From: Eucommia ulmoides
Taxonomy: Eukaryota > Streptophyta > Magnoliopsida > Garryales > Eucommiaceae
Direction of reading: 5' to 3'
Assembly: GCA_016647705.1 (NCBI GenBank)
Contig: CM028325.1
Location: 30,174,474-30,238,473, forward strand
Length of the DNA: 64,000 bases
The notes under the pieces were generated by a model. It saw nothing but the letters and a program-made list of their open reading frames with translations, was not told where the DNA came from and did no database searches. Both the position numbers and the translations under genes were made by a program. Positions 8,423 through 61,010 of the stretch are shown one piece after another. The stretch's first letter is position 1; each line of letters opens with the position of its first letter.

Positions 8423-9863
8423 TATATATATATATATATATATAAAGATAAAAATGTGGCATCTCCTAGAACAAGCCACACACCAAAATAAAATAAAATA
8501 AAATGTAAAGCTTGAGGCGTTGGAAGTTGTAGAAAAAATAAAACAAAGTCTCCCTCTATATAAATTTTCCTCTCTTTCTCATTATTTTTTTCACTCTCTA
8601 GGCTCTATCTCCACTTCTCTCTTTTGTCTATCATGTAAGTTCCTATCTCTCTCTCTTTCTCTCCCTATGTATATTTGTGTGTGTGTATATATAATTATGT
8701 AATATATATATATATATGAAAAAAAATGTGTCGAGGGTTTGGAAAATATAATGGGTATATTTATATACAGATATATCTAATTTGTGAAGAATTCAATTTG
8801 AAATAAAAAAATAATTTTTTTATTAAAATGATAATTTTTACTATTTTGTTGACTAATAAATATTATTAACAGTTGGATAATATTTTTTCGTAAATTAAAT
8901 TATTAATTAGAAAAATTTTGTAATTGTTGTAATAAAAAATTTTGTACGGTTAATATTGACTTAAGAACTGGACGTTTAATAATTTTATATAATTAAGAAA
9001 AATTTGGAATGGGAAAAATTGCATTTTTATTGTAACGCATTTCACACATTACATTGCATATAAGATTGATTTAGATAAATTCTTAGTTTAGACTCTTTTG
9101 TTGTTAAGTTCATAGGTGACGCTGATTACGACAATATTCCGATGATAGCAAAATAGCAGTGCAATTTTCAATGTGAGTGTACTGTTTTCTGTGTAAATTG
9201 TCAATTTATATTTTTGTATTAAAGTGTGAAAATAAAAGATTTATTAAAACGGATTATTTTATAACGTTAAATGGATCAAATAAATGGTTAAATGTAAAAA
9301 GTGATTTTTATTATTATACTGCTATGCCATAGTATGATCCCGACAGGAGGGCATGTCCCGCGAAATGTTGTTGGTCCTAACAGGAAGGTATATCTTATAA
9401 GACGTTGTGTTGTGACCTGGGAAGAGGGCAAGTCCTGCAGGTTGTTAATATATATTGTTGTTGTTGTTGATTATCATTATGATATGGTGGTTTATACCAC
9501 ATATTGGCTCTTACCATTAGAGATATTAAATAGCCCTAACATTGATGGTAACCTTAGGTTGCACAGTTAGACAAGTTATGGTACCGTTATAACTCCCGAT
9601 CGTGAAGTGAAACGATCATATGGTTAGTATGAAAATATATATGATATTTTATTATATGAAAGTTTATTTGATCAATAATTAAATTCAGTTGTTTTATTGT
9701 GACAATATTTGTGAGATTTTATTTCTGCTCAATGTGCAATTATATTTATGTTTTGAAAAGTGGTGTTTAGTAAATATACTTTATCCATAAATTATTTTTA
9801 TATTATAAAGACATTGCACTTCTAAAATATTTTGTTTCAAGTACTCCAGATAGAAGTGGGTCA
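8088..9863 (+). repeat. Truncated LTR of the hairpin-block family (family H)
   Basis: The order of landmarks matches the complete family-H solo LTRs at 27973 and 35873. They are: an AGAACATTTAGAAA stretch near the start; (AAT)n/(TA)n at 8391-8444; a CT-rich leader at 8545-8680; a TTCATAGGTGACGC...GTGAGTGTACTGT junction near 9110-9190; an array of GGACATGTCC-like palindromic units at about 9325-9440; and the conserved GATCGT...ACGATC block at 9578-9616. The end is missing because a family-S LTR starts at 9864. The second sequence here with this structure is 17744-19297, which continues past the break point. Confidence 0.65.
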
Positions 9864-12140
9864 TGTTGGCCCAGTGAACTACCCAAGAAGGAGTGAATTG
9901 GGTAGTTATAAAAATTTAAACAATTAAAACTTTCAACACTTAATTTATCAAATAATTAATTTATCCTAAATCAATTATTATCTTTATTACGCAGCAGATA
10001 AATGTTCATATTTTAAGTGCACATCCAAACAAAATATGATAAAAAATAATAACAAAACAGTACACCAAGATATATCTTGATTTGACAAGCTAACCTTACT
10101 TAATTCAGTCCCCCGAACTCCACAGAGATTCGTAACATCTAAACCCATGATTTTTTTTAACAGTAGGAACCGAACCCTTACAACGATTTTTTTTCTAGGC
10201 TCAGAATCAACCTTTACAATTTTTCTTTTCCCAGGTTAAGGAAGAACTTTATCTTTTTACCAGGCTAAAGACTAACCCAATTCTATTACAGAAAGAATCA
10301 CAACCTAATTCTTTTACAGGTTAAAGATCAAACCTCACAACTCTCAAAAGTATCGTTTTACTAGGTAAGGATTGAAACTTACAATTCACGCAAAATTAAT
10401 TCAATTTAAGGAAGAATCAAAACCCAATTTTTTTCAAGGAAAAGAATAACCTAACCTTTTTATACCTTAGGATAAAGATTAAACCTCAACTTTTTCACCA
10501 AAAAAGATTGAAACCTAACTACCCTGACTTGACACCGACCCAATTGTGTCTAATCCGCTCAAACTCATAAATGCAAAAAATTATGAGTTTCTTCCCACTT
10601 GGAGCTTCTACCACCTCGAAACAGTTATACTCAATTAATTTCCCAAAATTTATTACGTGATAGAATTAAAGTGAAGCTAATTAATATCTGATTAATAACA
10701 AGTGTAAGTAACACAAATTATAGCACGTAATTAGATAATAACACAAAATTGTTTTAATTTTTTTTTATGCTCTTAAATTTGAAAACAAATTTTTTAACGA
10801 TCTTAAATCCAAACAATCAACAATAATAAGAAATCTAAATTGAGAACAATAACTTGGAAAGATCTCACTAGGAAAATATCGAAGAATGAAAACAAGATTG
10901 CAAAACAGCACAGATCGGTTATGCCAATTCAACAACGCTTTAGCTCAAGAACTTTGATCACAAAATCTCTCGAATAATCTCAACAGTATGATAACTCTTA
11001 GAAAAGTTTAGGAACTGATGGTTCTTGATATTTTATCCAATTTTCGCAGGTCTATTTATATAGAATAAGATTAAGTCTTCCAACTATTAGTTTTCAAAAT
11101 ATATGCCTCTAAAAGGAACTTATAGACCCCATATATCATATTCATTCAATTCTGGTGTATTTAACTTAAAAATAACTTTTAAAACTTTTAATTAAGTCCA
11201 TAAAATATTAATCACAAATATAGGAAGTATTTAGTTGCTAAAATTGAGAGAATCTTTAACTAAATGGACCAAATCAATAAGGATATCAAAATATATGTAC
11301 CATATCTCTAGTATGTTCAAATCCCTCGTAATATTCCATTGGAATCATAAAAAATGGCTAGTTTTTTTTTTTTTTAATCAAAATCTCAAATTCCTCGAAA
11401 TCTCAACCGAAACAGTTGGTTAACCAAACCCTGCCTTGTCGGTTGACCAATTGATTCAGCGTGCAAACCAGACCAAAACCATACAGGTAGTCGGTTGACC
11501 GAACTCCCCACGGTCGGTTGACTGATCGATTCAAAGTGTTTTTCCAGTTAAACTACACCACAGTTGGTCGACCGATTGCCCTCCAATCGGTTAACCGACT
11601 GGTTCAGAGACTTTTTTATTTCCAGCCTAAGATTCATCGGTTACCTGATTACCTCTTGATCGGTTGACCGATTGATTCAGGATCTTCACATTTTGCTCCA
11701 AAACCTCACTGTTTCAATTAATTGACTAATCCTTTTCGGATCAGTTAACCGATTGATGCTGGTTGGTCAATTTCTTCACCAATTTCTATTCCAAAACTCA
11801 CTGTTTAATTCAATTAACCGATTATTTTTCTCGGTTAAATAAATTGACTCAAAATTTCAATTTTAAACATGATTTATACTTAGGTCAATTTTTATTTTTC
11901 AATTTCACATAGGAGCACATATTTGAACATTAATTAGGATCCTAAAATTCATAAAATCAAATACACAAAAATATAGCTCATTTAATAGTGTCGTGTGTGA
12001 TCCTAATTCGGATTGCATTAAGAGTATAAGAGTATTGAGTTGTTTTTATCTAATTTCTTTAGGATCTTCAATAGATAAAACTCATTTTCAATCATTAGAA
12101 TATATGTCGATTATCATAGGAAATAAATATTAACCATAAC
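9864..12140 (-). repeat. Family-S LTR, minus orientation (5' end truncated)
   Basis: The plus strand starts TGTTGGCCCAGTGA, as in the complete copy at 49329 (TGTTGGCCTAATGA). It follows that copy through the repeated CAGGCTCA-type units (about 10140-10510), the CTTCTACCACCTC stretch, the TCGGTTGACCGA palindromes and the TTAATTAGGATCCTA stretch. The expected far end (GGATTAACA) is not found, and similarity fades after about 12090. The duplicate of the five flanking bases GGTCA (9859-9863) was not found either. It could be the 3' LTR of a minus-strand element whose interior is the pseudogene at 12288-13645. That link is inferred from position and orientation only. Confidence 0.65.
11416..11830. 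repeat. Cluster of TCGGTTGACCGA-type palindromes
   Basis: About ten copies of a 12-bp palindrome occur at roughly 11416, 11439, 11491, 11514, 11564, 11586, 11637, 11659, 11740 and 11815. Examples are TCGGTTGACCGA, TTGGTCGACCGATT and ATCGGTTAACCGA. Several are followed by TTGATTCAG or a close variant. The palindrome core alternates between GTCGAC, GTTGAC and GTTAAC, the steps expected from C-to-T decay of GTCGAC on one or both strands. Spacing is 20-50 bp, with unrelated spacers. Confidence 0.85.
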
Positions 12141-12287
12141 CGATCATCTTCAGACAAACCACAATAAACTAATTACTACTTAGTCAAGTACCATAAATCC
12201 TAGATTAAACTATTACAGACCAAAGTACCAAGGCGAGACAAGTTCAAATTACACAACACTACTGAGAATGATAAAACATAAAATCTA

Positions 12288-14312: not shown

Positions 14313-14346
<34 letters not shown>

Positions 14347-14376
14347 TTTTTCTGTTTGTCTGTCTCTCTCTCTCTA

Positions 14377-14433
<57 letters not shown>

Positions 14434-17267: not shown

Positions 17268-17299
<32 letters not shown>

Positions 17300-17743: not shown

Positions 17744-19297
17744 CTCTCTTTTGTCTATCATGTAAGTTCCTCTCTCTCTCTCTATGTATATACAAGTGTG
17801 TGTATATATAATTATCTAATCTATATATGTATATATGTTTGTATATGAATATGTGCTATTAGGTGTAGTGGGTATATTTATATCTAGATATATCTAATTT
17901 GTGAAAAATTCAATTTAAAATAAAAAAATAAAAATTTTATTAAAATAATAAATTTTAGTATTTCGTTGACTAATAAATATTATCAACAATTGGATAATAT
18001 TTTTCATAAATTAAATTATTAATTAGAAAAAATTTATAATTGTTGTCATAAAAAATTTTATACAGTTAATATTGACTTAAGAAATTGAGAGTTTAATAAT
18101 TTTATATAATTAGGAAGAATCAGGAATGAAAATTTTTGCATTTTTAGTGTCACGTATTACATTGCATATTAGATTTGTTTAGATAAATTCTTAGTTTATG
18201 CTCTACCATTATTAGATTCACAGGCGACATCGACTACGACAATATTCTGACGATAGCAAAATAGCAGCCCAATTTTCGAGGTGAGTGTATTGTCTTCTAT
18301 GTAAATTGTCAAATTATATTTTCGTATTAAAGTGTGAAAATAAAAGGTTTGTTAAACGGATTATTTTATAACATTAAATGGATCAAGTAAAAGGTTAAAT
18401 GTGAAAAATGATTTTTATTATTATACTACTATGCCACAGTGTGGTCTAGATAGGAGGACATATCCTATGGAATGTTGTTAGTCCTAACAGGAAAGCATGT
18501 CCTGTAGGACGTTGTGTTATGACCTGATAGGAGGGCAAGTCCTGCAAATGGTTGACATATATTATTGTTGTTGTTGATTATCATTATGATATGATGGTTT
18601 ATACCACGTATTGACTCTTACCATTGGAGATATTAAATGGTCTTGACATTGATGGAAACCTTAGATTGTATAGTTGTACAGGTTGCGATACTGTTATAAC
18701 TCCCGATCATGAGGTGAAACAATCCTATGGCTAGTATGAAAATATGTCTGGTATTTTATTATATGAAAGTTTATTTGATCAATTCACTTAAATTCAGTTT
18801 TTTTATTGTGAAAATATCTATGGGATTTTATTTCTGCTTGGTGCGCGATTATATTTTTGTTTTGAAAAGTTGTGTTTAATAAATATACCTGATCTATAAA
18901 TTATTTTTATATTATGAAAATAGCACATTGGTAAAATATTTTATTTCAGGTACTCCAAATAGAGGTGAGTTCACTACTAGCATTAGATAGAGTGAGAGAG
19001 TAGGCAGTCCGAGCAGTCGTTGGTTATCAGGGGTTCAAACTTTTGTGGTGTTACAGAAAAGTTGGATAGGTATAGTTAAATTTTGAGTTAGTAAATTTTA
19101 AAATTTATGTCAGTTAACATATAGTTTATATTTATTATTAGTTGGATAGTAACAAGTCTAGTTCACGTCTATTATTATTTTATTTATCATAGTGGAACAG
19201 CGGAAGTGTGGTAGTAGAGTGATTTATCTTTTACCTCTATTTCTCCATAAAAATAGAAGGGAGAAAAAATGTGGCGACCTTGGGAAACTGGATTGTT
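17744..19297 (+). repeat. Family-H-like LTR remnant ending GGATTGTTACA
   Basis: It matches 8545-9863 closely: CT-rich leader, ACAGGCGACATCGAC...GGTGAGTGTATTGTCTTCT junction near 18220-18300, AGGACATATCCT-type palindromic units at about 18440-18560, and the conserved hairpin block at 18685-18725. It continues past the break point of that copy through GTACTCCAAATAGAGGTGAG and ACTACTAGCATTAGATAGAG. It ends GGCGACCTTGGGAAACTGG...GTTACA at 19297, an end resembling the LTR end at 32126. The beginning lies within the tandem duplication. Confidence 0.6.
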
Positions 19298-20000: not shown

Positions 20001-22628
20001 TGTCACACCCCACCCCGGACACTCGTCACCCTGGGACCGGTGTGACGTCGACACAATATCACCTGTACGTTCAACCAACTAAAAAAAACGATATTATGCA
20101 TACATAAATATAAAATCACATATACAAGCCATATACATCCTCTCATATGGGGGACACACCCGTTCCCAACAATAATAGCCACCCAAATATATAATAACTA
20201 TGAACCTCTCACAGATTTTCCTTAAACAGCTCATCACAAAAAAAAAAAAACTCCCACATGACTCCAATGCATGACTCTACCTAGTGTCAGTAGGGGACCG
20301 ACTCCTAACTGTTGTACCTGCGAGTGTACTGCCTTCTTAATAAAAATCATTTTTAAATAATAATACAGTCTAAATAATACAACATTTAAATGGATCAAGC
20401 ATAACGCATATAAACAAACATATTTTGAACAGTAATATAAAAATTGTATACCATGAGAAAACTCTTTCTTCCTACCATTCAGAATCATCCTCTATATATA
20501 TATTAAATATATAAATCCATCCAAACCATCAATATAAGATAATATGATAAAATACCAAAGATGATAAAATAAAACACCACATCACCATATATGATAAAAC
20601 ACCAAATACGATAAAACACCACCTCACAAACACCACACCACACCACATCACTCCACACCACACTACATCACACCACACCTTGGCTAGCCATGTGATCATT
20701 TTAATGTCACGATCGGGAGTTACAACGGTACCGTATCCCGTAGGATATGCCTTCCTGGCGGGATATAACAACACTTCGCTGGACTCTGCCAGACGGATGA
20801 AACAATGCTCCGCTGGACTATACCAGACGGGTGAAATAACGCTCTGCTGGACTATACCAGACGAGTGAAACAACGCTCCGCTGGACTATACCAGACGGGG
20901 GAAACACCGCTCCGCTGGACTATGCCAAGCGGGTGAATATCCACCACCAATCTCCACCTCACCACCATAACAACAACTCATCTCCACCTCAACAAAAACA
21001 ACTCATCTCCACCTCAATAGAAAATATCAACGCTCTACCGAAGCAGATAAAATCAATAGTATCGACAAAACAATAACAACATCATCAAACTACAAATCAA
21101 TAATATCAACATCTATTTCCAAAATCGATTTAATCCGAAAATCATATTTTTTACCTTTGTTTGAAAATTGTCTAATTTCAACGAAACCATTTTTCCCCTT
21201 TATTTTTAGAAAACCATGCATTTTTAGAAAAATAGATATTTTTCACTCTCTTTTAAAACCACCAAGTCCGACGAAAATCCCTTTTCACTAACTCACCCAA
21301 AACCTGTTTGATCCACTTCATTTTTTAAAAGCATCTAATTTAAATACAACAATTTTCTATCATATATAGATCTAAAAATAGTTTGGCAAGAAGACAGTAC
21401 ACTCATCTGGTTATCCGCTCTGAAGACTTTTTCCAACTATCCTCTACCAGTACTTCAGTACCTGCGAACCTAATAGTGACAAGACCTAAATTAATATTTT
21501 ATTTTCAATGACCTAACATGCAATGCAGACCCTAAATTTCATAATTCCCCATTTCTCAGATTTCATTGTGGAAAATTATTATGTGTCCATTTTGCTACGT
21601 TGATATTCATTGCACCAATTTATTTAGATTGGCGATTAATAAAATATTACTACGATCATGAAATTTCTTTCACGATTACGAAATGTTTAATACTAACAAT
21701 TTAATTTAACAAAAATAATACCCGATTAAAGTTTTACCTAATTTTGAATCCCCTGCCAGCCGCAAATTGGGTTTTTAGATTCTACTGGGGTGGTTTGTGT
21801 AATTTCGACTTTTTTTTTTTTTTCTTTCCTCTTTTTTTTTTTTTTTTTCTTTCCTCTTCCTCTGTTTCGGTTTCTGCTTTGCTGTTTCTGTTCGGTTTGG
21901 AACTCTCAACGCACCACTTCAACACTGGCCAACACTTAATCCTCTCGCCGATCTTCACCGCCAACGATCCGAACACATACACGGCACGCACAACATGGCA
22001 AACACGGCGACCCCACTGCCGAACGATCACCACCCCCACATCACCGAACCATCGTCGACCCTCTCTCTCTCTCTCTCTTCGTTTTTTGCTTCAGCTTCCT
22101 TTTAGCCAACCCTCAACGACATACAATCACACCCACACCACGACGGCAACGTCGAACCCACGGCCGAACACACACAAAACCAAAACCAAACTCACCTTCT
22201 CTCTCTCTAACTCTCCGCTTCGGCGACGACGACGACCACACCAACACCTCAACCATTTAACACACACACACACACACACACAATCTGATCAACACCCCCT
22301 CCACACACTTCCGCCGAAACACACACCACTGATCTCCTCTCCCTCCTCACTGTTTTCCTGTTTCTGCTTCTTGTTTCTGTTTGAACCAACCGCCGACCAA
22401 CGAAGTCTCTAATCTTGCCACTGACCGCCGGCCACCCCGCACCGTTTTGTAGACACACACCGCAGCAGCAACACACACACACAGTCGCCGAAAGACGGCG
22501 ACGAACCGCGACGATCACCAACAACGAACCACTACCAACCGAAACCCACTTCCCACTCTCTCTCCTCTATTTTTTTCTTCTTCTCTTCTCGATTCTTCCA
22601 CCCTATCATGCGTGTGTGTATGTAACTG

Positions 22629-27972: not shown

Positions 27973-30604
27973 TGTAAGACCCCGAATTAACACGTACGTC
28001 ATTTTAGTTGTATTTTAAAGTAATTATGAAAATTAAGGATGAAATTGGATCAAATTGAAAATCTAAAAACATTAAATCCCAACTTAGGGAGGTAAATTGA
28101 CATTTAGCTTTTAATTGAAACTTAAAGGGGTGAAATTGCAAATCTTAGAAACTTTTAAAAAGTTGAAATTGATTAAAATTAAGATTTAAAGAAAGTTGGG
28201 GGAGAAAAGAGTAATTAATTAAAAAGTTTATTATATATATATATATATCTTCATGTGTAATGATCAAAAAAATCACATCAAATTTGAAAATCAAAGAGAG
28301 AAGAAAACAAAGAAAGAAGAGAGAGAGGAGTAGCCAGGTTCGGTGCCAGCGGGGTGTGGTCAGCGTTTGCGGGGGGCTTTGCTATTCATGTGAGGTTGTG
28401 GATTTCTGTGGTGGTTGCGAGAGGGTGTATGATCGGAGAGGGCGGTGTAATCGTCCGGAGGTGGTGTGTTTCAGCGTGGAGGTGTCCGTCGTTCAACCAT
28501 CATCGTCATGTGTGCGTGTGTATTCTGTTTAGTCTGTCCGGCAGTGTATGGGGGTGATAGGTGTGTGTGCGTTTTCGGTTCTACTGGTGTGTGTGACGGT
28601 GTAAGTGGGTTTTCTGTTCGATCCGATGATATCGTCGACGTGGTGCCTATGAGTACTCTGCTTGATGACTGTGTGTGTGTGTGTGTGTGTGTGTATGTCT
28701 GCGTGCTATTCCGGTGGTGGGTGCTCTATCCATGGTGTTCGTTAGTTGTGTGTGTAACGTCGACGGTTGTTTGTGTGTGGGTGTTACTGTGCTTACGTGG
28801 TCGGCCATCGGACGTAGGCCGACTGTGTGGCTATGTGGGTGAGAGTCGATAGGGTGTGGGTGTGCTGGTCGGTCGTCGGTGAGCCTTGTGGGTGTGTCGT
28901 TGACAAATTTCGAAAGAGAGAGACGATCGGCCAACATAAAAAATAGAAACAGAGGAGAGAGGAGACGGCTGGGAACGGAACAGGAAACAGAGAAAAAAAA
29001 GAAAGAAAAAAAAAAGGGCATTACACAAACCACCCCGCTAAAAATAAAAAACTCATCTCGTGGTCGCCAAACGACTCGAAAACATGTGGAATTTCAATCG
29101 ATTATTAATTTTCATTAAATTAAATTTTATTTAGCGTTACAAATCCTAAAATCGTAACAATTTCCTAACGATTAAGTAATTTTAATTACGCGGTACATAA
29201 AATAGTAACGATTCGGAATATAGGGTTTGCATTGCGTGGTTCGGATGTTTTAGATAAGATATTAATTTAGGCTCTGTTACTATTAGGTTCGCAGGCACCG
29301 GTGTCCCGATAGAGTATGATCAGTAAAGGTTTTGGAGAGAGGATAACGAGGTGAGTGTACTGTCTTCTTGCCAAACTATTTTTCTATGTATATATATATA
29401 ATGAAATATGTATTTACTTAAACTGTATGAATTTATAAATGATATGGATCAAGCATGATTTGGGTGAGTTGGTAAACTGGATTTCCGGAAGATTCTGATG
29501 ATTTTCGAAATGAAGTTGAAAATGAATTTTTGTTGGATTTGGTAAAATCAGACGGTGTTTTTAAAAGAGAATAGAGGATATCTGTTTTTCTAAAAATGCC
29601 TGGTTTTCTAAAAATGAAGGGTGAAAAAGTGATTTTGATAAAATCAGACGTTTTCTTTAAAAGGAAGTGTGAAATATGATTTTTGAACTTAAAAGTTGGT
29701 TTTGAGGAAAAGAGATAGATGTGGTGATGTGACGATGTTGAGTAGATGATATTTATTGAGTTGTGATTCGATGATGCTGTATTTGATTTGACGATGCCAT
29801 AGTATTTATCTGTTTGGTAGAGTGAGGTTATCCGCTTCGGCGAAGTGATGTTATCCGCTTTAGCGGAGTGATATTTATCTGCTTCGGAAGAGTGATGTTA
29901 GACGTTTATACTGCGCAGTGATTATCCGCTTCGACAGAGTGATGGGTGTTCGTAGGAAGGCATATCATACGGATGGTACGGTACCATTGCAAACTCCCGA
30001 TCGTGAGATTAAAACGATCACTAGGGCTGACTAGTGTGTGTGTTTGGGATGTGTGCTTGAGATGTGGTGTTTTACGTATATTGGTTGATTTGATATTTAT
30101 CATTATGGTGATTGATATTATTTTACTAGATGGGTTGGAATGAAACTTATATGTATTACTTTATTTTCATTGCTTATATTATGGAGAATTTTACTAGTTA
30201 CGTGCTGTTTCTATACTCACGCTTGATCCATTTAGATGTTGTAGACTGAATTATTATCTTAAAAATATTTTTACTAAGAAGGCAGTACATTCGCAGGTAA
30301 AATAGTTAGGAGTCGGTCGGTCCCTTACTGGCGCTTGATAGAGTTATGCAGGTCACGCAAATGAGTCATTTGAGGAAAGTTTTGGAGACGAGATATCAGA
30401 AATGAAATCTAAGTGAGGTTCAGGGAATTTGTTTGATTGTATTTATATTTGGGACGGTGTATCCCTATTAGATGGGACTATTATATGTATTGTATAGATT
30501 TATAATTTTGTTATTGACGTATTGAGGTTGGCTAGTCAGTTGGGCGGTGCCATGTCCACGTCACGCCGGCCCCACATAATGGGTGTCCGGGGTGGGGTGT
30601 GACA
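27973..30604 (+). repeat. Family-H solo LTR (2632 bp) with TSD CTTTT
   Basis: It starts TGTAAGACCCCGAATTAAC and ends GGGGTGGGGTGTGACA, with CTTTT duplicated at 27968-27972 and 30605-30609. Copy B, around 39038-39045, shows the uninterrupted target sequence (GGTGACTTTCAGTTATGGG). It contains a GT-rich segment (28340-28860) and the hairpin array and conserved block at 29815-30019. The long open frames near 28260-29120 are low-complexity artefacts of GT/CA runs. Confidence 0.9.
29815..30019 (+). repeat. Hairpin array (CGCTTCGGCGAAGTG units) plus conserved block
   Basis: Units near 29818, 29828, 29852, 29878 and 29925 have the form TTATCCGCTTCGGCGAAGTG or a variant, spaced about 24-28 bp. CTTCG pairs with CGAAG; in the second unit CGCT pairs with AGCG. 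The conserved block follows at 29973-30019: GGTACGGTACC, then AACTCCCGATCGTGAG and AAAACGATC. Confidence 0.8.
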
Positions 30605-32126: not shown

Positions 32127-32600
32127 GCATGTCCTGTGAGATATTGTTGGTCCTTGTAAGAGGACATATCTTGTAGGAAATTGTGTTGTGACTTGGTAGG
32201 AGGGCAAGTCCTGTATATATTGTATTGAAACCTGACAAGAGGGCAACCTGTAGGTAGTTGATATGATAACTCTTGATCGTAAGTTAAAACAATCCTGTGG
32301 CTAGTAAGAAAGTATGATATTTTATTATATATAAGTAAGTTGACCAGTTGATTTAAATTCGGTTGTTCTATTACGATGATATTTTGTTGGAATTTTGATA
32401 TTGCTAAGTGTGTGGCTATATTTTGTTGCAAAGTTAATTCCGAAAAAAATACTTGATCCATAAATTGTGTTTGTATTATGAAGACAGTACACCGATAAAA
32501 TAATTCAGATAGATATTGGTCCACTACTAGCGATAGGTAGAGTCGGAGTGTGGAAAAATTATTGAGACTTTTAGCGGACTTAATGTAGTATTTTTATATA
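32127..32600 (+). repeat. Family-H LTR remnant, 3' part
   Basis: It starts mid-LTR at GCATGTCCTGTGAGATATTGTTGG, equivalent to the middle of the palindromic array at 18490. It continues through further AGGACATATCTTGTAGG-type units, a decayed conserved block (32265-32295) and GGTCCACTACTAGCGATAGG. Copy A probably inserted into this LTR with GCATG at the junction, but the other half was not found, so a deletion is likely. Confidence 0.6.
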
Positions 32601-35872: not shown

Positions 35873-38756
35873 TGTAAGACCCTAATTTTAACACGTGCAT
35901 AATTTTATCCGCATTTGAGAACATTTAGAAAATAACAGGATAGAATGTGTCAATTCTTATCCAATTTAAAATTTTAAAGGGTGAATTTGGGATTTTGAGA
36001 ATATTAAAGTTTAAAAAGGACTTAAATAATAACTTAAATGAAATTGAGGGGGATGTATGTAATTTAAATAAACATATATATATATATACACACAAAAATA
36101 ATAACTTAAATGAAATTGAGGGGGAACAGGGGACGGGAAGGATCCAGAAAAAAAAACCCGAAGAGAGGGAAAGATCAACGTGGCAATGCAAGGATTGAGC
36201 TCACATTACTACATTCATACATATATATATACACACATATACACACATGCCTGAACACAGGAGAAAAATAGAAAAAAAAAAAAAAAAAAAAGGGAAAGGA
36301 AGCAGAAACAGGGAACAGAGAAAGAAGAGAGAGACAAATGAAGATCGGTCGACAGCGGGTTTGTACATTTGGTGAGTGTTTGGTGGTCGACGATCGTGTG
36401 GGGTGGTATGCTTGGTCGCCGGAGAGCTTCGTGAGGGTGCCTTCGTCAAATTTCAGAAGGGAGGGTGGTGATTCTGTAAAAGTGGTAGGTGATCATCGCC
36501 AATCGTTTAGTGAGCACTCGGTCGGCCGTTCAGGTGCAAGTGTGCGTGTTTTGTGATCATTTTAGTCGCCGGGGTGCTCTGCTCATTCGGTGGGAGGAAT
36601 CGCCAATGGGTTCCGATTTTGTCCGACAGTGACATTCGGCGGAGTGGGCGTGTTTTTTGTTTTTTGTTTTGTGCAACATGGGTGTTGTGTGTGTGCTCTG
36701 GGTATGGTCGGCAATGTGTGTGTGTTCTCTAACCATCGACGATATGCATTTGGGGGTATTCGTCAGTTTTGTTTGGTTGGTGGGTGTGGGTGATGGGCTA
36801 GCGGTGAGTGGAAAATAGTGAGGGAGAGAGAGAGCATCGGTTGTGGGCGTGTAGGCCTCTGTTCTGGTCTGACGGAACTGTTGTTGTGGGGGGGGGGGGG
36901 GGGTTCGTCACGGCGGTCTGTGTAGGTGTACAGTTCAAATGCCGTTGGGTGAGTGTGAGGGTGATAGCCGCGTGTGGTGCGTGGCCAGCCGACGAAAAGT
37001 CCAAAACAGAACAGAAGTGGAAAAGAAAAAGGAGAAAAAAAAGAGGGAAAAATTACACAAACAATCCCAATAAAATCCAAAATCCATCTCGCGGCCGACG
37101 GAAGATTCGGAATAGGTAAAATCTAAATCGATTATTATTTTTGTTAAATTAAATTATTAACATTAACAGTTTCGCAATCGTAATAGTAATCCCCGTAATC
37201 GTAATAATATCTTAATAATCGTAAATTTGAATAAATTAGTACAATAAATATTAACGAGGTGAGATGGATAAAATAATAATCCTTCATAATAAAGTAATTG
37301 GGGAATGGAAAATATGAAATTTAGGGCCTGCATATTAGTTATTTAAACAAAATATTAATCTAGGCCTATCGTTATTAGGTTCACAGGTGCTAGTATCTGG
37401 GAAGTTTCTGACGGCAATATTTCTATAGTGCGGGAATCGAGGTAAGTATATTATCTTCTAGTTAATTTCAAAAATCTATTTTTGTATAAATTATGAAAAA
37501 TGTGTTTATTTAAAAATGAACGAATTTACAACTTATATGGATCAAGCGGTTTTGGGTGTTGGTGGAAATTAAAAATATTTTGTGGATTACGTTAGTTTTA
37601 AAAGTTTTAAAAGGGGTGGAAAATGAATTGTTGAATCTAGTTGATTTCAAAAGGGGTGGAAGTAGATTATCGAAAAATTCGTTTGTTTTTTAGATGGAAA
37701 TTGGTGTTTGGTCCGACTACGCCATAGTATTCACCTGCTAGGCATAGTCCGACAGAGCATTGTTCACCTACTAGGTATAGTCCGGCAGAGCGTTGTTCAC
37801 TTGCTAGGCAGAGTCTGGCAGAGCGTTGTTTACTTACTCGGCAAAGTCCGGCAGAGCGTTGTTTACCTACTAGGCAAAGTCCGGCAGAGCGTTGTTTATG
37901 ACCCGTTAGGAAGGCAATTCCTACGGGTGGTACGGTACCGTTGCAACTCCTGATCGTAAGGTTAAAACGATCCTATGGCTAGTCGGAGGGTGGTGTGGTG
38001 TTTTGTCGTATAAGGTGAACTAGTTGGATAAATTTATATATATTACTTTACACTGGATTGATGTATCTATTATTTTGGTTGTTTTACACTATTTGGTTAG
38101 ATGTAGTATTCGGGTGGAATTTTACTGTTGGGTTGGGATGTTATAAATATACGAGTTATTTCTGTGGCAACAAGAAAACGAAGTTTGTGGTATGTATTTA
38201 TTATATTCTATTGGAATTGGGTGGGTTAAATGCAATATTTCTTTACAGTGGCGGCAGTTGAAAATTGGTTCCTACTATGAGATACGGTATTATTGTTATA
38301 TTATTTTATTTAATTGGTGGCAGTAAAACCGGGTACGTGATTATATTATATTATATTTCAAAACATGATGTTTATCATTTATTGGTTTTGAACTGTAGTA
38401 TTTAAATTCTTATACTTGATTCATACGAAATGTTTTTATTATGAAGACAGTACACCGATAAAAAAAAAAAAAAATTGGTTTTAGGTATCGCGGCTAGGAG
38501 TTGGTCCACTACTGGCACTAGGGAGAGTCTAGAGGTAATGTCATGTTGGAGGTGAGTCGGTCGAATGTGAACCGTGGAAAGTTAAGGTATTTTAGTAGAA
38601 ATGTTTTGTGGATTTTCAGGACAGGTATATATATTTTATAGTAACACGAGTGTGTATGTATATATGTTTGATTGGATATTCGTGGTTTTGTTTGGTGACG
38701 TCAGGTCGATGTTACGCCCGGCCTCAGGTGACGGATGCCCGAGGTGGGCTATGACA
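35873..38756 (+). repeat. Family-H solo LTR (2884 bp) with TSD CCTAT
   Basis: It starts TGTAAGACCCTAATTTTAAC and ends GAGGTGGGCTATGACA. CCTAT is duplicated at 35868-35872 and 38757-38761. Copy A shows the empty site at 27707-27711 (GGACCTATTGGAATTGAG), so the insertion post-dates the split of the two copies. It contains a 16-base G run at 36888-36903 and the hairpin array and conserved block at 37715-37972. Confidence 0.92.
37715..37972 (+). repeat. Hairpin array (~33-bp units) plus conserved block
   Basis: Five units of the form TTCACCTACTAGGCATAGTC followed by CGGCAGAGCGTTG recur at about 33-bp spacing from 37728 to 37890. Near 37905 comes a diverged unit with GTTAGGAAGGCAATTCCTAC, then GGTACGGTACCGTTGC and the conserved AACTCCTGATCGTAAG...AAACGATCC (37927-37972). 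Confidence 0.8.
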
Positions 38757-53099: not shown

Positions 53100-53119
53100 A
53101 AATACAAATTTTGAATCGC

Positions 53120-53607: not shown

Positions 53608-54208
53608 TGTCACACCCCCACACCGGACATCCGTCACTGTGGGGCCGGCGTGACGTCGACACGACCTCACCAGAATGACAATCACTATAGACGACAACAT
53701 ATACACATAAATATATAATCACAAAAGCCAACTAAATATATATTCATTCTCTACTCGGGGACACTCTTGTCCCTACAAAATTCTCAATAACATCTAAGAA
53801 AAACCCAAAACCTCTTATTTGATTCACCTCAAATGATACCCACAAGAAACTTTTTCCCTATCGCACCTCTGGATCCGACCTATTGCTAGTAGGGGACAAA
53901 CGCCTATCTACAGCACCTGCGAGTGTACTGTCTTCTTAATAAAAATATTTAAATATAATAATACATTCTAGATAATACAATATTTAAATGGATAAAGCAT
54001 AAGTATGCAAACATCACATGTCTAATAAAAATCACCATGATATAAGTACCTCATCATAATAAAAACAATGGAAATAAATCAATATATATAAGTTCCATTT
54101 AAAATCCCTCCAGTATAAAATAATCCCAATCATCCTATATAATAAATCACCAAATATAAATAAAACAGCACATCTCAAAATACCACACCACTCACTGGCT
54201 AGCTATAG

Positions 54209-54540
54209 TGATCGTTTTAACCTCACGATCAGGAGTTGCAACAATACAACATCCGTAGGAATGCCTTCCTACAAAATATCCACACCCCTTTTGGGGAGAA
54301 ATATAATCCACATCCCTTACAGGGAGAACTATCTACATCCCATGGGAAGAAATCCACACCCCTTCTAGGGAAAAATAATCCACACCCCTTACGGGGAGAA
54401 AACTATGGCATCGTCCAAATCAACAATTTCGTCTAAAAATCCATACCCCTTATGGGGAGAATATAAACCACACCCCTTTCGGGGAGAATTTTCAAAATCA
54501 CATTTACTCAAACCACACCCCTGACGGGGAGAATTTTCAA
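54209..54540 (-). repeat. Conserved hairpin block plus array of CACCCCTTACGGGGAG hairpins
   Basis: The block GATCGTTTTAACCTCACGATC with AGGAGTTGCAAC (54209-54245) is followed by about eight units of CCACACCCCTTACGGGGAGA and variants near 54288, 54311, 54335, 54357, 54381, 54443, 54471 and 54512. In each unit CCCC pairs with GGGG around TTAC, TTTT, TTTC or TGAC. Some units have lost one arm (e.g. CATCCCATGGGAAG). Confidence 0.85.
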
Positions 54541-54722
54541 ACCACGTTTTTTTTTTCTCTTTTTAAAAGTACCACCTATTTAGTAAAAACCATTTTTTTC
54601 AATTTCCTTTCTTTAAAACAAAACCAACACAATTTACCGAAAATCTATTTTTCTCCAACGCACCCAAAACCGGCTTGATCCACGTGGTTTTAAAATCATC
54701 CAAGTCAAGTAAAATCTATTTT

Positions 54723-54753
<31 letters not shown>

Positions 54754-55165
54754 CATATATAAATAGTTTGACAAGAAGACAATACACTCACCTGATAATC
54801 CGCTCTCAAAAGCTCCACCGACTCTCCATTACCGATCCTCTAGAAATTGGGAACCTATTTGTGACATGACCTAAATTAATATCTTAGAGAAAATTAACCT
54901 AATTATGCAATGCAAGTCTTATGTTCATTAATTTCCCATTCCTCACGTTTTGTTATGCTAAAATATTATTTGACGAGTTTTAACACCGTTAAAGTTTACT
55001 ATTTAAACCTAACTCATACAAACGATCTCATTGGTTATTATCTTCATTTTGATATTTTAAGGCTAGAAATCTAATTTAGAAATCATAAAAGTAAATTAGA
55101 AATGTTACCCATTCCGAATCGATTGTTGATCTTCTTAAAATTTTCTTAAGTTTAGGCTCCTGCTC

Positions 55166-55304
55166 CCACCGCTTAAGCGAACATCTCTCATTTTGCACAC
55201 TGATCTTCCACCGCCTAGGCTGACTCCCCACTGCCTAGGCAAACTCCCGCTGCTTCACTTTCTGATGCTCCACCGCCTAGGCGAAAGAACCACCGCCTAG
55301 GCGG
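55166..55304. repeat. CCTAGG-centred palindromes in the 3' LTR
   Basis: Five copies lie at 55166 (CCACCGCTTAAGCGAA), 55208 (CCACCGCCTAGGCTGA), 55228 (CCACTGCCTAGGCAAA), 55270 (CCACCGCCTAGGCGAA) and 55290 (CCACCGCCTAGGCGGA). They occur in two close pairs ~20 bp apart, with 42-bp gaps, the same spacings as in the unrelated element at 4232-4413. Confidence 0.85.
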
Positions 55305-56032
55305 ATGAAGCTCCTCCTTTATGCTCTGTTTCGGATCCTGTCGTCTCTCTCTCTCACCTCACCTCACCAACACTGGCAACTACGACTACCACCACAGTTG
55401 TTCATACACGCACAACACACGCAATACACATCCACATGCACACCACAACAATTTATAAGCATTTATCATATACACACCCAGAGAAAACACACACAACCTC
55501 CACTCTCTCTCTAACCTTTACCCATCGCCGGCCCAATTAACTGGCAGCAAGACATACACACACACACACACCAGAACACCATTGAACACACACATAACAA
55601 CACACATAACACCCACACACACTCATGATCACCACCACCATAGACAATGAGCCACACACACATGGCACACTTCACCCTCACTCAACAGAAACAGAAACAG
55701 GGGACACACACACACACACACCCACTCACTAAAACAGACAGAGAAACATACACACACACACACACACACACACACTCAACAAGCATGTGTACACACCCAG
55801 ACGACACCGCTCACCATTGACCGCCGAATACCCACCGCCGGCGAGTCCCTTTCCTCCGGTTCTCTCTCTATCTTCTTTATCTTTTTTTGGGTTTTTCTTT
55901 AGAATATTTTCGATCCCTGATCACCATGCATACATATATACATGAAATTTGTGGAGCTCACATGTGCCACATTGCCACTTTCTCTCGATCCTTCCGTTGG
56001 ATCACAATAGAATACACACACACCCAAATATG

Positions 56033-56063
<31 letters not shown>

Positions 56064-56349
56064 TTTAGATAAATTTCTCTTTTCTCCCCCCCTATTATCT
56101 TTAATACTTATTTTAGCCCAAATTATCTTCTTAAACTTCCCAAACTTTTCAAAATTATAATTTCTCCCCCAAAAGTTTTATTTCGAAAATTAGATACAAC
56201 AATTTTAAATTAAAAGTTTTCCAGAAATTTTCAATTGGACCCCTAAAATTTTAATTGAAAATTTAAATTTACCTAATTTTTTTTCCAAATTTTCTCAATT
56301 ATTCTAAAATGCAACTAAATGACGTACGAGCCTGAATTGAGGTCTTATA

Positions 56350-59300
56350 GCTCTTCCCTCCTAAAAGAAATTTCGTCCCGAAATTTTTGTCAAACCAATA
56401 ATACGTCAGATTCGCACCACATGGTCACGTTCGTCTCACGTGATTCTAGAACACTGTTTCCTATGTAGGGTCCCATAATCATAAGTCGTCCAAAATTTAT
56501 AGTCATCAGTTTTCGCCAAATCATATCCACCCAGTGCAACATTTTCATTTGCAGTGGTCGATATTATATCCAACACCCAAGAAATAGGGTGCACTCAATC
56601 GGTCACGCTCAACACGAACAGCCAACTGTCGAAGAATCTCATGTTTCTAACTGCTTTTGTTGCGCCACTCTGATAAAAATCACGATCAACAATAATATAT
56701 GCTGAAAATATCGCAGTAATCTCAGTTGATTGGGCCTATCTTATTCCGACAATAAGTTTTCCATAACTAATCCGACATTTCTTGTCAACCAGTTCGCTAC
56801 AATATCTCCCTTTAACATTTAAACCAACAATATTCACAACCAATCTCATACGCACTTTCATAAGCACAGATAGCCCAAAAATCATTAACTTCCATATTTA
56901 TCTAAGAATCTCCAATACCCTTATAAACGTTTTTCTAATATTACCGTTAACTAATTATTTCGAAATACGCTAAACCACATAGAGACGTTTTAAATCACAT
57001 CCAAAACATATCAATGTCCCTCAAAACACCTTGATATTACCAAATCATATTATTACGTCTCAAATTACATTAAACGGGTCATCTATAAGAATTCATTTCA
57101 TGCCTCCATATTTAATCAAGTCCCTGACAAGGTCACGTGCTCCAATTCCCTTTCAATCTACCCAACATGCTTCTAACATATATTCACGTATAAATATGAA
57201 TCGAAGAACATAGATACGTCCCATTTACAAAAATTCATTACATCTCAAAAGTCATTAGTTACTGACTGTAAAATATTATATCATGAGTACATATCAACTC
57301 ATGGACATTTCGAGTTATCTTTTTTCCCATGAAATCTTAATGACCTTCACATGCCGTCTCCGCTTATTGTTACCAGTGGTCCAATACATCTAGTTTCGTT
57401 CTCCTATCTCAGTTCGGTCGATTTGATTAACGTCATGTATCCTTTTCATATAGTGCTTTATACGATGCCACCCTTGATCATCAAAAAGGTATTTATTATT
57501 TTAAACAAATTCCACTACGAACTGTATCAGACAATGGAGACTTACTTTGTTTTGATAAAAAAAAAAATATTTTTCAATTCACACTACGGCGACAACACTT
57601 ATAATTTCATAATTCCAATTCAGGAATTTCAAATATTTATAAGTTTATGTATCAACATATGTTAAATTTTCAATTCAGGAGCAACTAATCATTACCGAAC
57701 GTATCATTCAACGTTCAACATTCATTGTACTACACTCCCGATGCCATTCTGGAATAGCTGCAATAACCCACCTCGATATTAATACTCGATCTTAATCCTA
57801 ACATACAAGACACCTAACAACAACTTCTGGGACTTCTCATTCTCTTCCAAACTATCAATAATGTTCACGCAACCTCGATACATATTAATATCACTGGGGT
57901 GCATGATAGATATTGAATTATGCACTTCCTTCTAAAGTCTCTTTTGTTAAATGGGGGCATTATTAGGGACACACAATTTATTTTCAATCATCAAGACTTT
58001 ATCATTATTTCTGACATAATAATCAGCTCTATAACCATTTTCCACTGCATCTCTAACCTTTCCCAACTAGACATCTAACTTCTATGCTTCTACAGCATAA
58101 GCGATCAATGTCGATTCCAAAACCAGAGTATTTAAACAGCATTGCCATCTGACCAACCGCCCTCTATACTTACAAGGGTCTCAACTTATTACATAACTTA
58201 GTGTGAACAACTTAAATGTACTCATTCCAACTTACCAATTTCCGACTTAAAGCATTGGCTCAAACTTTGGTCTTTACTGAAAAATAATGGATGGCGCGAT
58301 TGTAGTCTTTGATCAATTTTATTATAAGCAATTATTCTCAATTCTGGGGGTCGATGCATATCCCACAAATTTCATCATACAGGTAAAGTTAGTAAAACGT
58401 CAAAGCATCTACAATCACTGCCAATACCCAAAAGTTTCGGGTTCCAATTACACTTTTCGACCTTTCTCATTAAATCATAGCTTTAGCTTCAACTTCCTTT
58501 GGATTCATGTGAATACTATTTCCCAAGATCACATGTCCCAATTTACTACTCGCTCCAATCCAAAACTCACACTTACTGCACGTGACATATAATTGTTTTT
58601 CTCGCAGCATCAGCCACACAATCTGGAGATACTCTCCATGCTCTTATCTGCTCTCTACCAGATTGTCGTTTTCACCACATCACCGTCTCTGACCTCCAAC
58701 TAGAAGTATCCTCATCAAAAGCTAATTGGGAAAATACCCTAATCTTTCGCGGTTGATTAAACACACCATCAAGTCTAACCGATGAGTCACCAACACACAT
58801 CCCCAACATACCTCCCTTTTTCTTTACGAATAACACCAGGTCTTCAGGGAGAAAAACACTAGGTCCAACTTAATCGTAAGTTAACAGTCTATTTTATTGT
58901 AACGACCCGATTTCCTAAGGTCGTCACACGACTTCTCCTATAGAGACTTTCTAAACTGAAAACTAACTCACTCGAATTTTCCATACTCAATAACTTTTAA
59001 TTACTGATTTTACCATAGAAATTACAAGGTGCACTCACTCTTCTTCTTCAAATTAATCCACTCATTTTGTCTACACCACGACGATCAACTTTCAAGTCCT
59101 AAGGTTATCGTTAAAATTCCAATTTCCCATATTTTTTATTAACACGATTATATCTAATCAACTTAATGAGCCGAACGTTCACCTCTTTAAAATTTTGGAA
59201 CTTATTTTACAACAACTATGGTTGTTAATCATGCTTTCTAGTACCCCGACATTACCTCTTGGAACTACTTAAGGAAATCCCTAGCTACTAAAATATCCAC

Positions 59301-60107
59301 CGCCTAACTTGTTCCGACTGGTGCCCAACACCCGCGTACAGTATTCTGATATCTTTGTTTTAATACTTTTCTGACCTCCAGGACCCATTATCAACTAACT
59401 GGGGTACTAATTAAGCCTTCCCAACAATACACACTTTGATTCATCTAAGATAAGATTTAACTCCACCGGCAACTCTATATTTATGCGCACTTTCTATTAT
59501 CCCAGACCTACAATTCTCGGCTACTTTCTACATATCACTTTCTATTACGTTTGCTATATCTACAAGTTCCATAAACTTTTACTCTACTTTCCCGTTAACC
59601 TAGTACGTACTACCCAATTACAATTTCCTCACACTTTTAGTTCCAACCAATACCACACTTTTTTTTTTTTACATCATAAGAGTCCTTCCATATTGCCAAA
59701 AAAGGCAATTTTTATACTCATTTTGAATGCCACTTCATATTCCAACTTAAGTGTTCTAATATACTATCTAATATTTTTATCCGTCACGTAATACGCATAT
59801 AGTTGTTTCTTACTTGCCTCCCATTTCCGCCACCAACAACACAACATCACTCATATCCACCAACTGGCAATATCACCATTTTGTCGCATCACTACCTGTC
59901 AACGAGACAACCCGCCAAGCACGATGCCAATACCCTAATTAATATCATGAAAGAACTAACACTCACGTATCGAACTTACCTATCGACACCCTATCTCATA
60001 TCCCCTACTGACTAGACGACTAGCACGTCCCCCTATCTCATGGTCCTCAACTAACACAACAGCTGATAAGTCTACAGAACCTATAATCTAGGCTCTGATA
60101 CCAAAAT
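56350..60107 (-). pseudogene. Internal region of the nested family-H element: decayed gypsy pol
   Basis: It starts (minus sense) at the primer site and ends in AATTTCGGGACGAAATTTC and the AGGAGGGAAGAGC polypurine tract (56350-56362). No open frame is convincing. Parts resemble the pol region of the surrounding chromovirus at nucleotide level: 59380-59460 (cf. 53030-53140, protease-RT linker), 58650-58700 (cf. 52860-52920, RT) and 58570-58630 (cf. 52600-52690). A segment at 58906 onward starts TGTAACGACCCGATTTCC like the reverse complement of the LTR end at 32126, so a further small LTR fragment may be nested there. Gag was not found. Confidence 0.7.
60092..60103 (-). other. Primer-binding site complementary to tRNA-iMet
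   Basis: The plus strand reads GCTCTGATACCA, so the minus strand reads TGGTATCAGAGC, an exact match to the standard plant initiator-Met primer site. It lies four bases from the TGTCACACC terminus of the 5' LTR. Confidence 0.92.
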
Positions 60108-60713
60108 TGTCACACCCCACCCCGAACACCCGTCACTATGGGGCCAGGGTGACATCGACATGACCTCAGCTAAATGACAATTACTATAGACGACAATATA
60201 CACGCATAAATATATAATCACAAAAGCCAACTAAATATATATACATTCTCTACTCGAGGACACTCTTGTCCATACAAAATTCTCAATAACATCCAAGAAA
60301 CAAAACACAATACCTCTCATTTGCTTCGCCTCAAATGATACCCACAAGAAACTCATTCCCTATCGCACCTCCGAATCTGACCTATTGCCAGTAGGGGACA
60401 AACCCCTATTTACAGCACCTGAAAGTGTACTGTCTTCTTCATAAAAATATTTAAATATAATAATACATTCTAAATAATACAACATTTAAATGGATCAAGC
60501 ATAAGTATACAAATATCACATGTCTAATAAAAATCACCATAATATAAGTACCTCATCATAATAAAAGCAGTGGAAATAAATCATATAAGTTCCATTCAAA
60601 ACCCCTCCAGTATAAAATAATCCCAATCACCCTATATAACAAATCACCAAATATAAATAAAACACCACATCTCAAAACACCACACCACTACACTACTCAC
60701 TGGTTAGCTATAG

Positions 60714-61010
60714 TAATTGTTTTAACCTTACGATCGGGAATTACAACGGTACCGTAACATCCGTAGGAATGCCTTCCTAAGAAATATCCACACCCCTTAC
60801 GGGGAGAACTATCTACATCCCATGAGAAGAAATCCACACTCCTTCCGGGGAGAAATAATCCACACCGCTTACAGGGAGAAAACTAAAATCAACAACTTCA
60901 CCTAAAAATCCACACCTCTTATGAGGAGAATATAAACCACACCCCTTTCGGGGAGAATTTCTAAAATCACATTTACTTAAACCACACCCCTGACGAGGAG
61001 AATTTCCAAA
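60714..61010 (-). repeat. Hairpin block and CACCCCTTACGGGGAG array of the 5' LTR
   Basis: The block at 60714-60756 (AATTGTTTTAACCTTACGAT, then CGGGAATTACAACGGTACCG) and about eight CACCCC-hairpin units to 61010 correspond to 54209-54540. One unit differs in number or is decayed between the two LTRs, showing turnover after insertion. Confidence 0.82.

What the first reader, a model, noticed from the sequence alone, without database searches (positions are those of the whole stretch)
9325..61010. Family-H LTRs carry a conserved hairpin block next to a hairpin array whose unit sequence is different in nearly every LTR
In eight LTR copies (blocks at 9578, 18685, 20692, 29973, 32265, 37927, 54209 and 60714) a block containing CTCCCGATCGTGAG and AAAACGATC is kept when most of the LTR has diverged. 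On its 5' side lies a tandem array at the same place each time, but with different units: AGGACATGTCCT-like, CTGGACTATACCAG, CGCTTCGGCGAAG, CTACTAGGCATAGTCCGG, or CACCCCTTACGGGGAG. Most of these unit types contain a short self-complementary stem. Replacement of unit sequence while keeping hairpin form and place is unusual and suggests a structural role (RNA packaging/dimerisation, replication or protein recruitment) or a repeat-generating process tied to the block.
Basis: partly seen in the sequence, partly recalled or inferred. Interest (0 to 1): 0.9.

Follow-up and report, generated by a model that had tools for sequence, protein, structure and literature searches.

The report
Hairpin-array intron inside plant retrotransposon LTRs
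The conserved block and its hairpin array lie in an intron inside the long terminal repeats of an abundant plant retrotransposon, and genomic copies that have lost this intron by splicing are much rarer than copies that have lost the intron next to it, so it may mark the RNA that gets copied back into DNA.

Summary
CTCCCGATCGTGAG occurs 7,909 times in this 947-Mb plant genome (reversed control: 1). A hairpin array lies 5' of it at a nearly constant offset, with stem potential above shuffles (mean z -1.8 in 55 copies; flanks about 0). "Different in nearly every LTR" is too strong: 8 window LTRs carry 5 unit families, and three families dominate the sample.

The new result is its place. Array and block lie inside a 0.6-1.1-kb intron of the LTR. 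Three genomic LTR copies lack exactly that stretch, joined at AG|GT; two of them also lack a shorter upstream intron. Thirty-eight copies lack the upstream intron, and 37 of these keep the start of the hairpin intron. Loss of the upstream intron (38 against about 2,800 uncut sites) is roughly 17 times commoner than loss of the hairpin intron (2 against 2,660).

The hairpin intron's ends pair with each other (-27.7 against -8.1 kcal/mol shuffled); the upstream intron's do not. Array types have switched repeatedly on the tree of the 3' flank.

Best reading: a structured leader intron that marks unspliced RNA for packaging, like a retroviral psi. Splicing is shown; packaging is inferred. The main rival is that this intron is simply spliced poorly.

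The parts
60108..62825 (-). 5' LTR of the window's clearest element (starts TGTAAGACC, ends GTGTGACA), next to the primer binding site TGGTATCAGAGC
53608..56349 (-). 3' LTR of the same element; 85% identical to the 5' LTR; target-site duplication CGTTT on both outer sides; purine-rich tract just before it
60419..61262 (-). intron 2 of the 5' LTR, 844 nt, CAG|GTGAGT...TTTCAG|GT; holds array and block
   Evidence: splicing of this intron shown in other copies
60788..61000 (-). array of T1 units (CTCCCCGTAAGGGGTGTGG-like; loops GUAA, GAAA and others)
60715..60740 (-). conserved block
61245..61264 (-). 5' splice site and 5' arm of the intron-closing helix P1
60425..60438 (-). 3' arm of P1, just before the 3' splice site
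53917..54791 (-). intron 2 of the 3' LTR, 875 nt; T1 array 54280-54531, block 54210-54235
20318..21406 (-). intron 2, 1,089 nt, with T5 array 20772-20932 (CCGTCTGGTATAGTCCAGCGG-like), terminal hairpin 20737-20762, block 20694-20719; P1 arms 21389-21408 and 20324-20337; the donor GT reads AT in this copy
29351..30296 (+). intron 2, 946 nt, with T2 array 29832-29941 (CCGCTTCGGCGG / CTGCTTCGGCAG-like; mostly UUCG-like loops), terminal hairpin 29948-29973, block 29994-30019; P1 arms 29349-29368 and 30277-30290
37442..38484 (+). intron 2, 1,043 nt, with T4 array 37735-37891 (CTACTAGGCATAGTCCGGCAG-like), terminal hairpin 37902-37927, block 37947-37972; the one intron of 35 in which P1 is not in the predicted fold
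18281..18949 (+). intron 2 of a B-form LTR with bulged T3-type hairpins 18446-18548, block 18700-18725; the P1 3' arm is decayed in this copy
9173..9840 (+). intron-2-like stretch of a decayed B-form LTR (acceptor CAA instead of CAG; end placed, one search placed no end), T3 units 9339-9441, block 9593-9618
32192..32295 (+). truncated copy: one T3 unit and the block; donor not found

Best explanation
The block and its hairpin array lie in the second of two introns in the leader part of the long LTR of a Ty3/gypsy element. SHOWN by the sequence: intron 2 and a shorter intron 1 upstream are missing exactly between GT...AG sites in some genomic copies, that is, they were spliced out of RNAs that were then reverse transcribed; by the patterns used, copies that lost intron 1 are about 17 times commoner than copies that lost intron 2; the ends of intron 2, not those of intron 1, are strongly complementary; the array keeps hairpin form and place while stems change by paired substitutions and whole arrays are exchanged. 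INFERRED: intron 2 is a cis signal carried only by unspliced genomic RNA. The P1 helix closes an RNA domain, the array offers several equivalent hairpin sites (probably for Gag), and the block with its palindromic CGATCG may serve dimerisation. RNA without intron 2 would serve mainly as messenger, having lost a leader stretch full of hairpins and about 25 ATGs. Array exchange would follow from template switching between co-packaged RNAs.
For: Exact splice removal: a pattern with A six bases before exon 2 gave 8 hits; six look like mutated uncut ends by their last six letters (not fetched) and two are true junctions, L049 and L050; a third, L054, came with intron 1. L050 is an LTR flanked directly by TCACC on both sides and lacks both introns. 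Intron 1: 38 exact junctions, reversed control 0, in 31 clusters at 90% identity or more over 250 bp (21 at 85%, the largest of 14), so many separate events; two lie 6.6 kb apart on one strand of C16, as the two LTRs of one element would (not checked further). 37 of 38 keep the intron-2 donor arm. Uncut sites: 2,819 or 2,865 (control 63) for intron 1; 2,660 for intron 2 A-form; B-form 0 cut against 130 uncut. End pairing: intron 2 -27.7 kcal/mol in 35 copies against -8.1 for letter shuffles; intron 1 -6.0 in 9 copies against -7.5. P1 is in the predicted fold of 34 of 35 introns. Terminal hairpin and block helix: 93.9% of cells paired, and percentage paired, covariation score and cells changed on both sides above all 500 shuffles. 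Paired C-G/U-A states in units. UNCG loops in 57 of 75 T2 units, GNRA in 39 of 77 T1 units; these two classes make 65 of 485 four-base-loop hairpins on the array side against 8 of 253 in the flanks.
Against: No RNA or protein data. Rare intron-2 loss can equally mean that intron 2 is rarely spliced. The cut and uncut counts come from patterns of different strictness. An earlier, narrower junction pattern found none. Of the 37 copies said to keep intron 2 only its start was fetched. P1 and P2 arms hardly vary, so covariation is weak (permutation p 0.10 and 0.07), and P2 is in only 16 of 29 predicted folds. For the terminal hairpin and block helix two of five measures do not exceed shuffles (number of pairs with both sides changed, 278 of 500 shuffles as high; further pair types, 500 of 500). 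G-U and A-C departures in unit stems are about equal (93 and 82) and the antisense strand folds as well (mean z -2.3), so there is no sense-strand signature. Half of T1 loops are not GNRA (38 of 77). The transcription start was not determined; only splicing shows that the region is transcribed. Shuffle tests ignore relatedness.
Confidence: 0.45

Rival explanations
1. Splicing control: pairing of the two ends of intron 2 (P1) and the hairpins keep this intron poorly or conditionally spliced, so most full-length RNA keeps it; no packaging signal is needed. Rare loss reflects rare splicing.
For: P1 pairs the 5' splice site region with the stretch before the 3' splice site; intron 1 lacks such pairing and is lost far more often.
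Against: Does not explain why an array of hairpins is kept and exchanged between P1 arms, nor the conserved block. Two of the three intron-2-less copies also lack intron 1, as if from fully processed RNA.
Confidence: 0.28
2. DNA-level control: the palindromic units are transcription-factor sites, an enhancer in an LTR intron, as proposed for palindromic LTR repeats of Sireviruses.
For: Sirevirus LTRs carry clustered palindromic repeats whose sequence differs between elements (PMC2829016, section 9 read). No strand asymmetry here.
Against: No core sequence common to all unit families was seen, only hairpin form (by eye). A single unpaired base at the same place recurs in T3, T5, T8, T9 and several terminal hairpins (by eye), and stable RNA tetraloops recur; neither is expected of sites for a DNA-binding dimer.
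Confidence: 0.15
3. Mutational by-product: slippage and template switching of reverse transcriptase on hairpins make, perfect and amplify palindromes; neither hairpin form nor position is selected.
For: Arrays of tandem repeats in expanded non-coding regions of plant Ty3/gypsy elements are described (passage of PMC6317226; it speaks of non-chromoviruses). Exchange of arrays is frequent.
Against: The recurring bulge would be removed by palindrome perfection; constant place, the conserved terminal hairpin and block, and the intron-end helix are unexplained.
Confidence: 0.12

Closest known systems
Palindromic repeated motifs (RM) in Sirevirus (Ty1/copia) LTRs (PMC2829016, section 9 read)
   Same: Clusters of short palindromic units at a set place in the LTR; sequence differs between elements while symmetry is kept
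   Different: Sirevirus units have a CGG-CCG core (except Tnd-1) and lie upstream of the TATA box; here units differ within one family, have loops and bulges, no common core, and lie in an LTR intron of a Ty3/gypsy element
Retroviral packaging signal between splice donor and acceptor (general knowledge; start of the abstract of PMC5035971 seen in a search listing)
   Same: Structured RNA domain with hairpins and palindromes lying in the intron, so present only in unspliced RNA
   Different: Here the intron lies inside the LTR itself, so DNA copies record splicing; Gag binding untested; hairpins form a tandem array of exchangeable type
BARE1, Ty1/copia (PMC3735527, passages read)
   [quoted passage not shown] spliced RNA kept out of replication
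   Different: The BARE1 splicing favours a Gag-only RNA and the packaged RNA comes from another promoter; spliced DNA copies could not be amplified from barley, whereas here they exist and can be counted
Ogre intron (Ty3/gypsy; cited in PMC6317226, passage read)
   Same: Partly spliced intron in a plant Ty3/gypsy element
   [quoted passage not shown] no hairpin array mentioned in the passage
Yeast intron-end pairing that aids splicing (recalled, not looked up)
   Same: Helix between the start of an intron and the stretch before its branch site or 3' end
   Different: In this element the helix also encloses an array and a conserved block, and may retain rather than aid

Membership tests
Ty3/gypsy LTR retrotransposon | LTR pair with TG..CA ends, 5-bp target duplication, PBS and purine tract | tested here: met
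   window 53608-62825: pair 85% identical, CGTTT on both sides, TGGTATCAGAGC after the 5' LTR
Ty3/gypsy LTR retrotransposon | gag zinc knuckle, protease, RT, RNase H, integrase domains | tested here: met
   Pfam hits on pieces from L020, L010, L012 (zf-CCHC, RVP_2, RVT_1, RT_RNaseH, Integrase_H2C2); the L014 gag hit is just below its cut-off; order gag-RT-RNase H seen in L020
Chromovirus, Tekay/Del clade | chromodomain at the end of integrase; clade by RT phylogeny | not tested
   suspected from the purine-tract region and long LTR (recalled); no chromodomain search or RT tree made
Spliceosomal intron | GT...AG ends with consensus context | tested here: met
   donor-like match (up to 6 of 20 mismatches) in 48 of 55 copies; 34 of these 48 read AG|GTRAGT exactly, the rest are partly decayed (hand count); acceptors mostly CAG|GT or TAG|GT
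Spliceosomal intron | exact removal from a DNA copy made from RNA | tested here: met
   intron 2 in L049, L050, L054; intron 1 in 38 pattern hits and L050
Retroviral-type packaging signal | located so that spliced RNA lacks it | tested here: met
   array and block inside intron 2; absent from L049 and L050
Retroviral-type packaging signal | RNA lacking it is not packaged or reverse transcribed | tested here: inconclusive
   2 of 2,662 for intron 2 against 38 of about 2,860-2,900 for intron 1; splicing rate unknown
Retroviral-type packaging signal | binds Gag | not testable with these tools
   -
Sirevirus palindromic repeats | CGG-CCG core in a Ty1/copia LTR | tested here: not met
   different cores, Ty3/gypsy element
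Sirevirus palindromic repeats | placed upstream of the TATA box | tested here: inconclusive
   the start site was not determined; TATA-like searches gave no common site
Retrozyme or other known RNA family | match to an Rfam model | tested here: not met
   no match at gathering scores in the whole window

The most novel reading that the evidence does not exclude
A plant LTR retrotransposon carries its packaging (psi-like) signal in a leader intron inside the LTR: a self-closing intron with an array of exchangeable hairpin sites that is kept up by compensatory change and swapped as a cassette, so that the genome itself holds a record of which RNAs were accepted for reverse transcription.
Probability: 0.33. 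Interest if true: 0.82.

Novelty: new variant of a known kind. Interest (0 to 1): 0.66.

Why it matters
How plant LTR retrotransposons separate the RNA they translate from the RNA they copy is known for few elements (BARE, by the passages read, was claimed as the first). Because these introns lie inside the LTR, every insertion records whether its RNA had been spliced. The thousands of insertions in one genome therefore give a ready-made test of which part of the leader is needed for copying, and of how fast an RNA signal can change its sequence while keeping its shape.

Tried and rejected
Rfam: no known RNA family in the window at gathering scores. Narrow junction pattern: no hit; replaced by one that tests a single discriminating base. 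Sense-strand test by G-U against A-C departures and sense against antisense folding: no asymmetry, so RNA level cannot be argued from these; the terminal hairpin (G-U 30, A-C 6, other 27 of 198 cells) was left out of that sum because two registers are mixed in it. Covariation of the long-range arms P1 and P2: arms too invariant to tell. A search for TATA boxes gave no common site. A transposon (TIR) origin of the P1 arms was considered and set aside: their edges coincide with splice sites used in real junctions; an ancient origin as a transposon is not excluded. "T7" (L012, 7000 minus) was kept as a one-copy label in the tree and counts but is probably a foreign join: the other LTR of that element has a T8 array and the same 3' flank. 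Type labels of five copies (L012 7000 minus, L023, L041, L042, L043) were set by hand. One antisense match (L043, 987 plus) was dropped before counting (55 of 56 copies kept); copies too short 3' of the block were left out of the tree (53 of 55 kept). Both-arm tests used 46 (P1) and 40 (P2) copies; whole-intron folds 35; intron-1 ends 9, because the pattern for its ends was strict. Species not identified: the few named entries among the best 120 relatives of an RT piece are eudicot plants, apart from one labelled Pediococcus. Literature searches listed no paper describing hairpin arrays in an intron of a plant LTR; one search listed none at all, searches showed 25 of 165, 25 of 276, 15 of 55 and 15 of 29; only open-licence papers are held and listings were read by title and abstract start. 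Papers of which passages or one section were read: PMC6317226, PMC2829016, PMC2832683, PMC3735527.
Full report
1. What was checked. The window lies in a 947-Mb genome with no name given (G000, contig C1). The contigs named include C2-C17 with lengths of 43-80 Mb. The few named relatives of an RT piece are nearly all eudicot plant entries. The 14-mer CTCCCGATCGTGAG has 7,909 exact copies genome-wide and one for the reversed pattern.

2. The element. Window 53608-62825 (minus strand) is a recognisable element: LTRs of about 2.7 kb, 85% identical, ends TG..CA, CGTTT on both outer sides, PBS TGGTATCAGAGC. Pieces of gag (zinc knuckle), protease, RT, RNase H and integrase from sister copies match Pfam, so this is Ty3/gypsy. 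The Tekay/Del clade is suspected but was not tested.

3. The array. Twenty 10-kb and twenty 2-2.6-kb stretches (covering 42 of the first 45 exact motif copies listed) gave, with the window, 56 copies, one of them (32270) added by hand; one antisense match was dropped, leaving 55. The sample is taken in order along C1 and favours copies with an intact motif. The stretch 5' of the block has local folding energy below dinucleotide shuffles (mean z -1.8; 24 of 55 below -2), unlike the 3' side (+0.5) or the stretch 5' of the donor (+0.06). Recognised unit families: T1 CTCCCCGTAAGGGGTGTGG (77 units), T2 YYGCTWCGGCRGAG (75), T3 CCTGACAGGAGGGCAAGTCCTGCAGG (39), T8 CCTGTCAGGCAAGTCCTGCAGG (14), T4 (7) and T5 (5), plus T6 and T9 seen by eye. 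By eye, T3, T5, T8, T9 and several terminal hairpins next to the block share one plan: a lower stem of 3-4 bp, one unpaired base on the 5' side, an upper stem of 4-5 bp, and a loop. L009 holds T1, T2 and T4 units in one array, so T2 may be T4 with a shortened top.

4. Paired changes. In T2 the second pair is C-G 37, U-A 32, mixed C-A 3, U-G 3. Genome-wide, in the first 100 listed of 4,970 units, my hand tally is 50 C-G, 34 U-A, 10 C-A, 5 U-G, 1 A-A. For the outer pair of T1, in the first 100 of 2,983: 78 C-G, 10 U-A, 5 C-A, 5 U-G, 2 C-U (hand tally). The terminal hairpin and block helix are 93.9% paired in 35 A-form copies with covariation score above all 500 shuffles; two of the five measures do not exceed shuffles, and the block helix itself barely varies. 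These units are related by descent, so the number of independent events is small. Departures G-U and A-C are about equal (T1, T2, T3, T4, T5, T8 together 93 and 82; terminal hairpin left out), as expected from decay after insertion; this gives no strand signal.

5. Exchange of arrays. On a tree of the 420 nt from the block onward (53 of 55 copies), array type changes at least 18 times (minimum 9; shuffles mean 30, none as low). For T1 and T2 alone there are 7 changes against 9.8 shuffled, with 60 of 1,000 shuffles as low. Array type is thus only loosely tied to the 3' flank within that group, which suggests recombination between the array and the block or flank.

6. The intron. In 48 of 55 copies a donor-like AG|GTGAGTGTACTGTCTTCT lies 288-712 nt before the block; 34 of the 48 read AG|GTRAGT exactly, the rest are partly decayed. 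Downstream lies GAAGRCAGTACAC followed by TCGCAG|GT (A-form) or about 20 nt later by TTTCAG|GT (B-form). A pattern requiring A six bases before exon 2, where uncut ends have T, gave 8 hits: six read ACGCAG, ACACAG or ACGTAG and are taken as mutated uncut ends (not fetched), and two are real junctions. L049 and L050 read exon 1 directly into exon 2; donor, array and block are absent. L050 is flanked by TCACC on both sides and also lacks an upstream stretch exactly between GG|GTAAC-type and TATTAG|GTTCGCAGG sites, intron 1. L049 keeps intron 1. A search for intron-1 junctions gave 38 hits, control 0. All 38 were fetched, 391 bases each: 37 keep the intron-2 donor arm and one (L054) reads on into exon 2. 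They form 31 clusters at 90% identity or more and 21 at 85%, the largest of 14. Two hits on C16 lie 6.6 kb apart on one strand, as two LTRs of one element would.

7. The contrast. Uncut intron 1: 2,819 acceptors or 2,865 donors with 63 in the control, so 38 cut copies are about 1.3%. Uncut intron 2 (A-form): 2,660 (the first 100 listed all end like uncut introns), so 2 cut copies are 0.075%. B-form: 0 cut, 130 uncut. The patterns differ in strictness, so the factor of about 17 is rough, but the 37 of 38 within one set does not depend on it. Ends of intron 2 pair at -27.7 kcal/mol on average (35 copies; letter shuffles -8.1, sd 2.5); ends of intron 1 at -6.0 (9 copies; shuffles -7.5). Intron 2 is 577-1,130 nt and holds 25 ATGs on average; the nine measured introns 1 are 201-268 nt. 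P1 appears in 34 of 35 predicted folds; the second long-range pair ATGGATCAAGC/GCTTGATCCAT (P2) in 16 of 29.

8. Interpretation. That the array is in a spliced intron is shown by DNA copies of spliced RNA. That RNA without intron 2 seldom becomes DNA is also shown, but two causes fit: it is not accepted as template (psi-like signal in the intron), or it is seldom made (P1 hides the splice sites). Two of three intron-2-less copies also lack intron 1, which speaks for fully processed RNA existing. The tandem hairpins of a common plan fit several equivalent protein sites, most simply Gag, but this is inference. The block contains the self-complementary CGATCG between CTC and GAG and can also form GATCGT/ACGATC; a dimerisation role is speculation.

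9. Known relatives. Sirevirus LTRs carry palindromic repeats of differing sequence (PMC2829016, section 9), so keeping symmetry while changing sequence is not new as such. BARE1 separates translated from copied RNA (PMC3735527; passages), and its authors could not amplify DNA copies of spliced RNA. Ogre has a partly spliced intron elsewhere (PMC6317226; passage). The combination found here was not seen in the listings.

10. Verdict.

Noticed in passing
window 55150-55320 and 61640-61800 (minus strand); L050: Exon 1 of the LTR leader carries a second palindromic repeated motif, CGCCTAGGCGGTGG-like, upstream of intron 1.
   Followed up: no
L012:7000 minus and L012:241 minus: The two LTRs of what looks like one element share their 3' flank but differ 5' of the block: one has T8 hairpins, the other a long CGCCTAGGCGG inverted-repeat sequence reaching to within about 20 bp of the block; probably a foreign join.
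   Followed up: partly
window 42229-42777 (minus) and 45765-46610 (plus): Open frames that look by eye like Ty1/copia reverse transcriptase and integrase pieces (not searched); 40865-41265 and 46593-46985 are 91% identical direct repeats.
   Followed up: no
window 15446-17743: A direct repeat of about 1.15 kb, 96% identical, head to tail.
   Followed up: no
window 34204-34217 and 34358-34371: Two tandem copies of a block-like CCTCCGATCGTTAG / CCCCCGATCGTTAG motif 154 bp apart in a different-looking context.
   Followed up: no
L036 (1000 and 1567 minus), L048 (333 and 1001 plus): Two blocks 567 and 668 bp apart on one strand, suggesting local duplication of intron-2 parts within LTRs.
   Followed up: no
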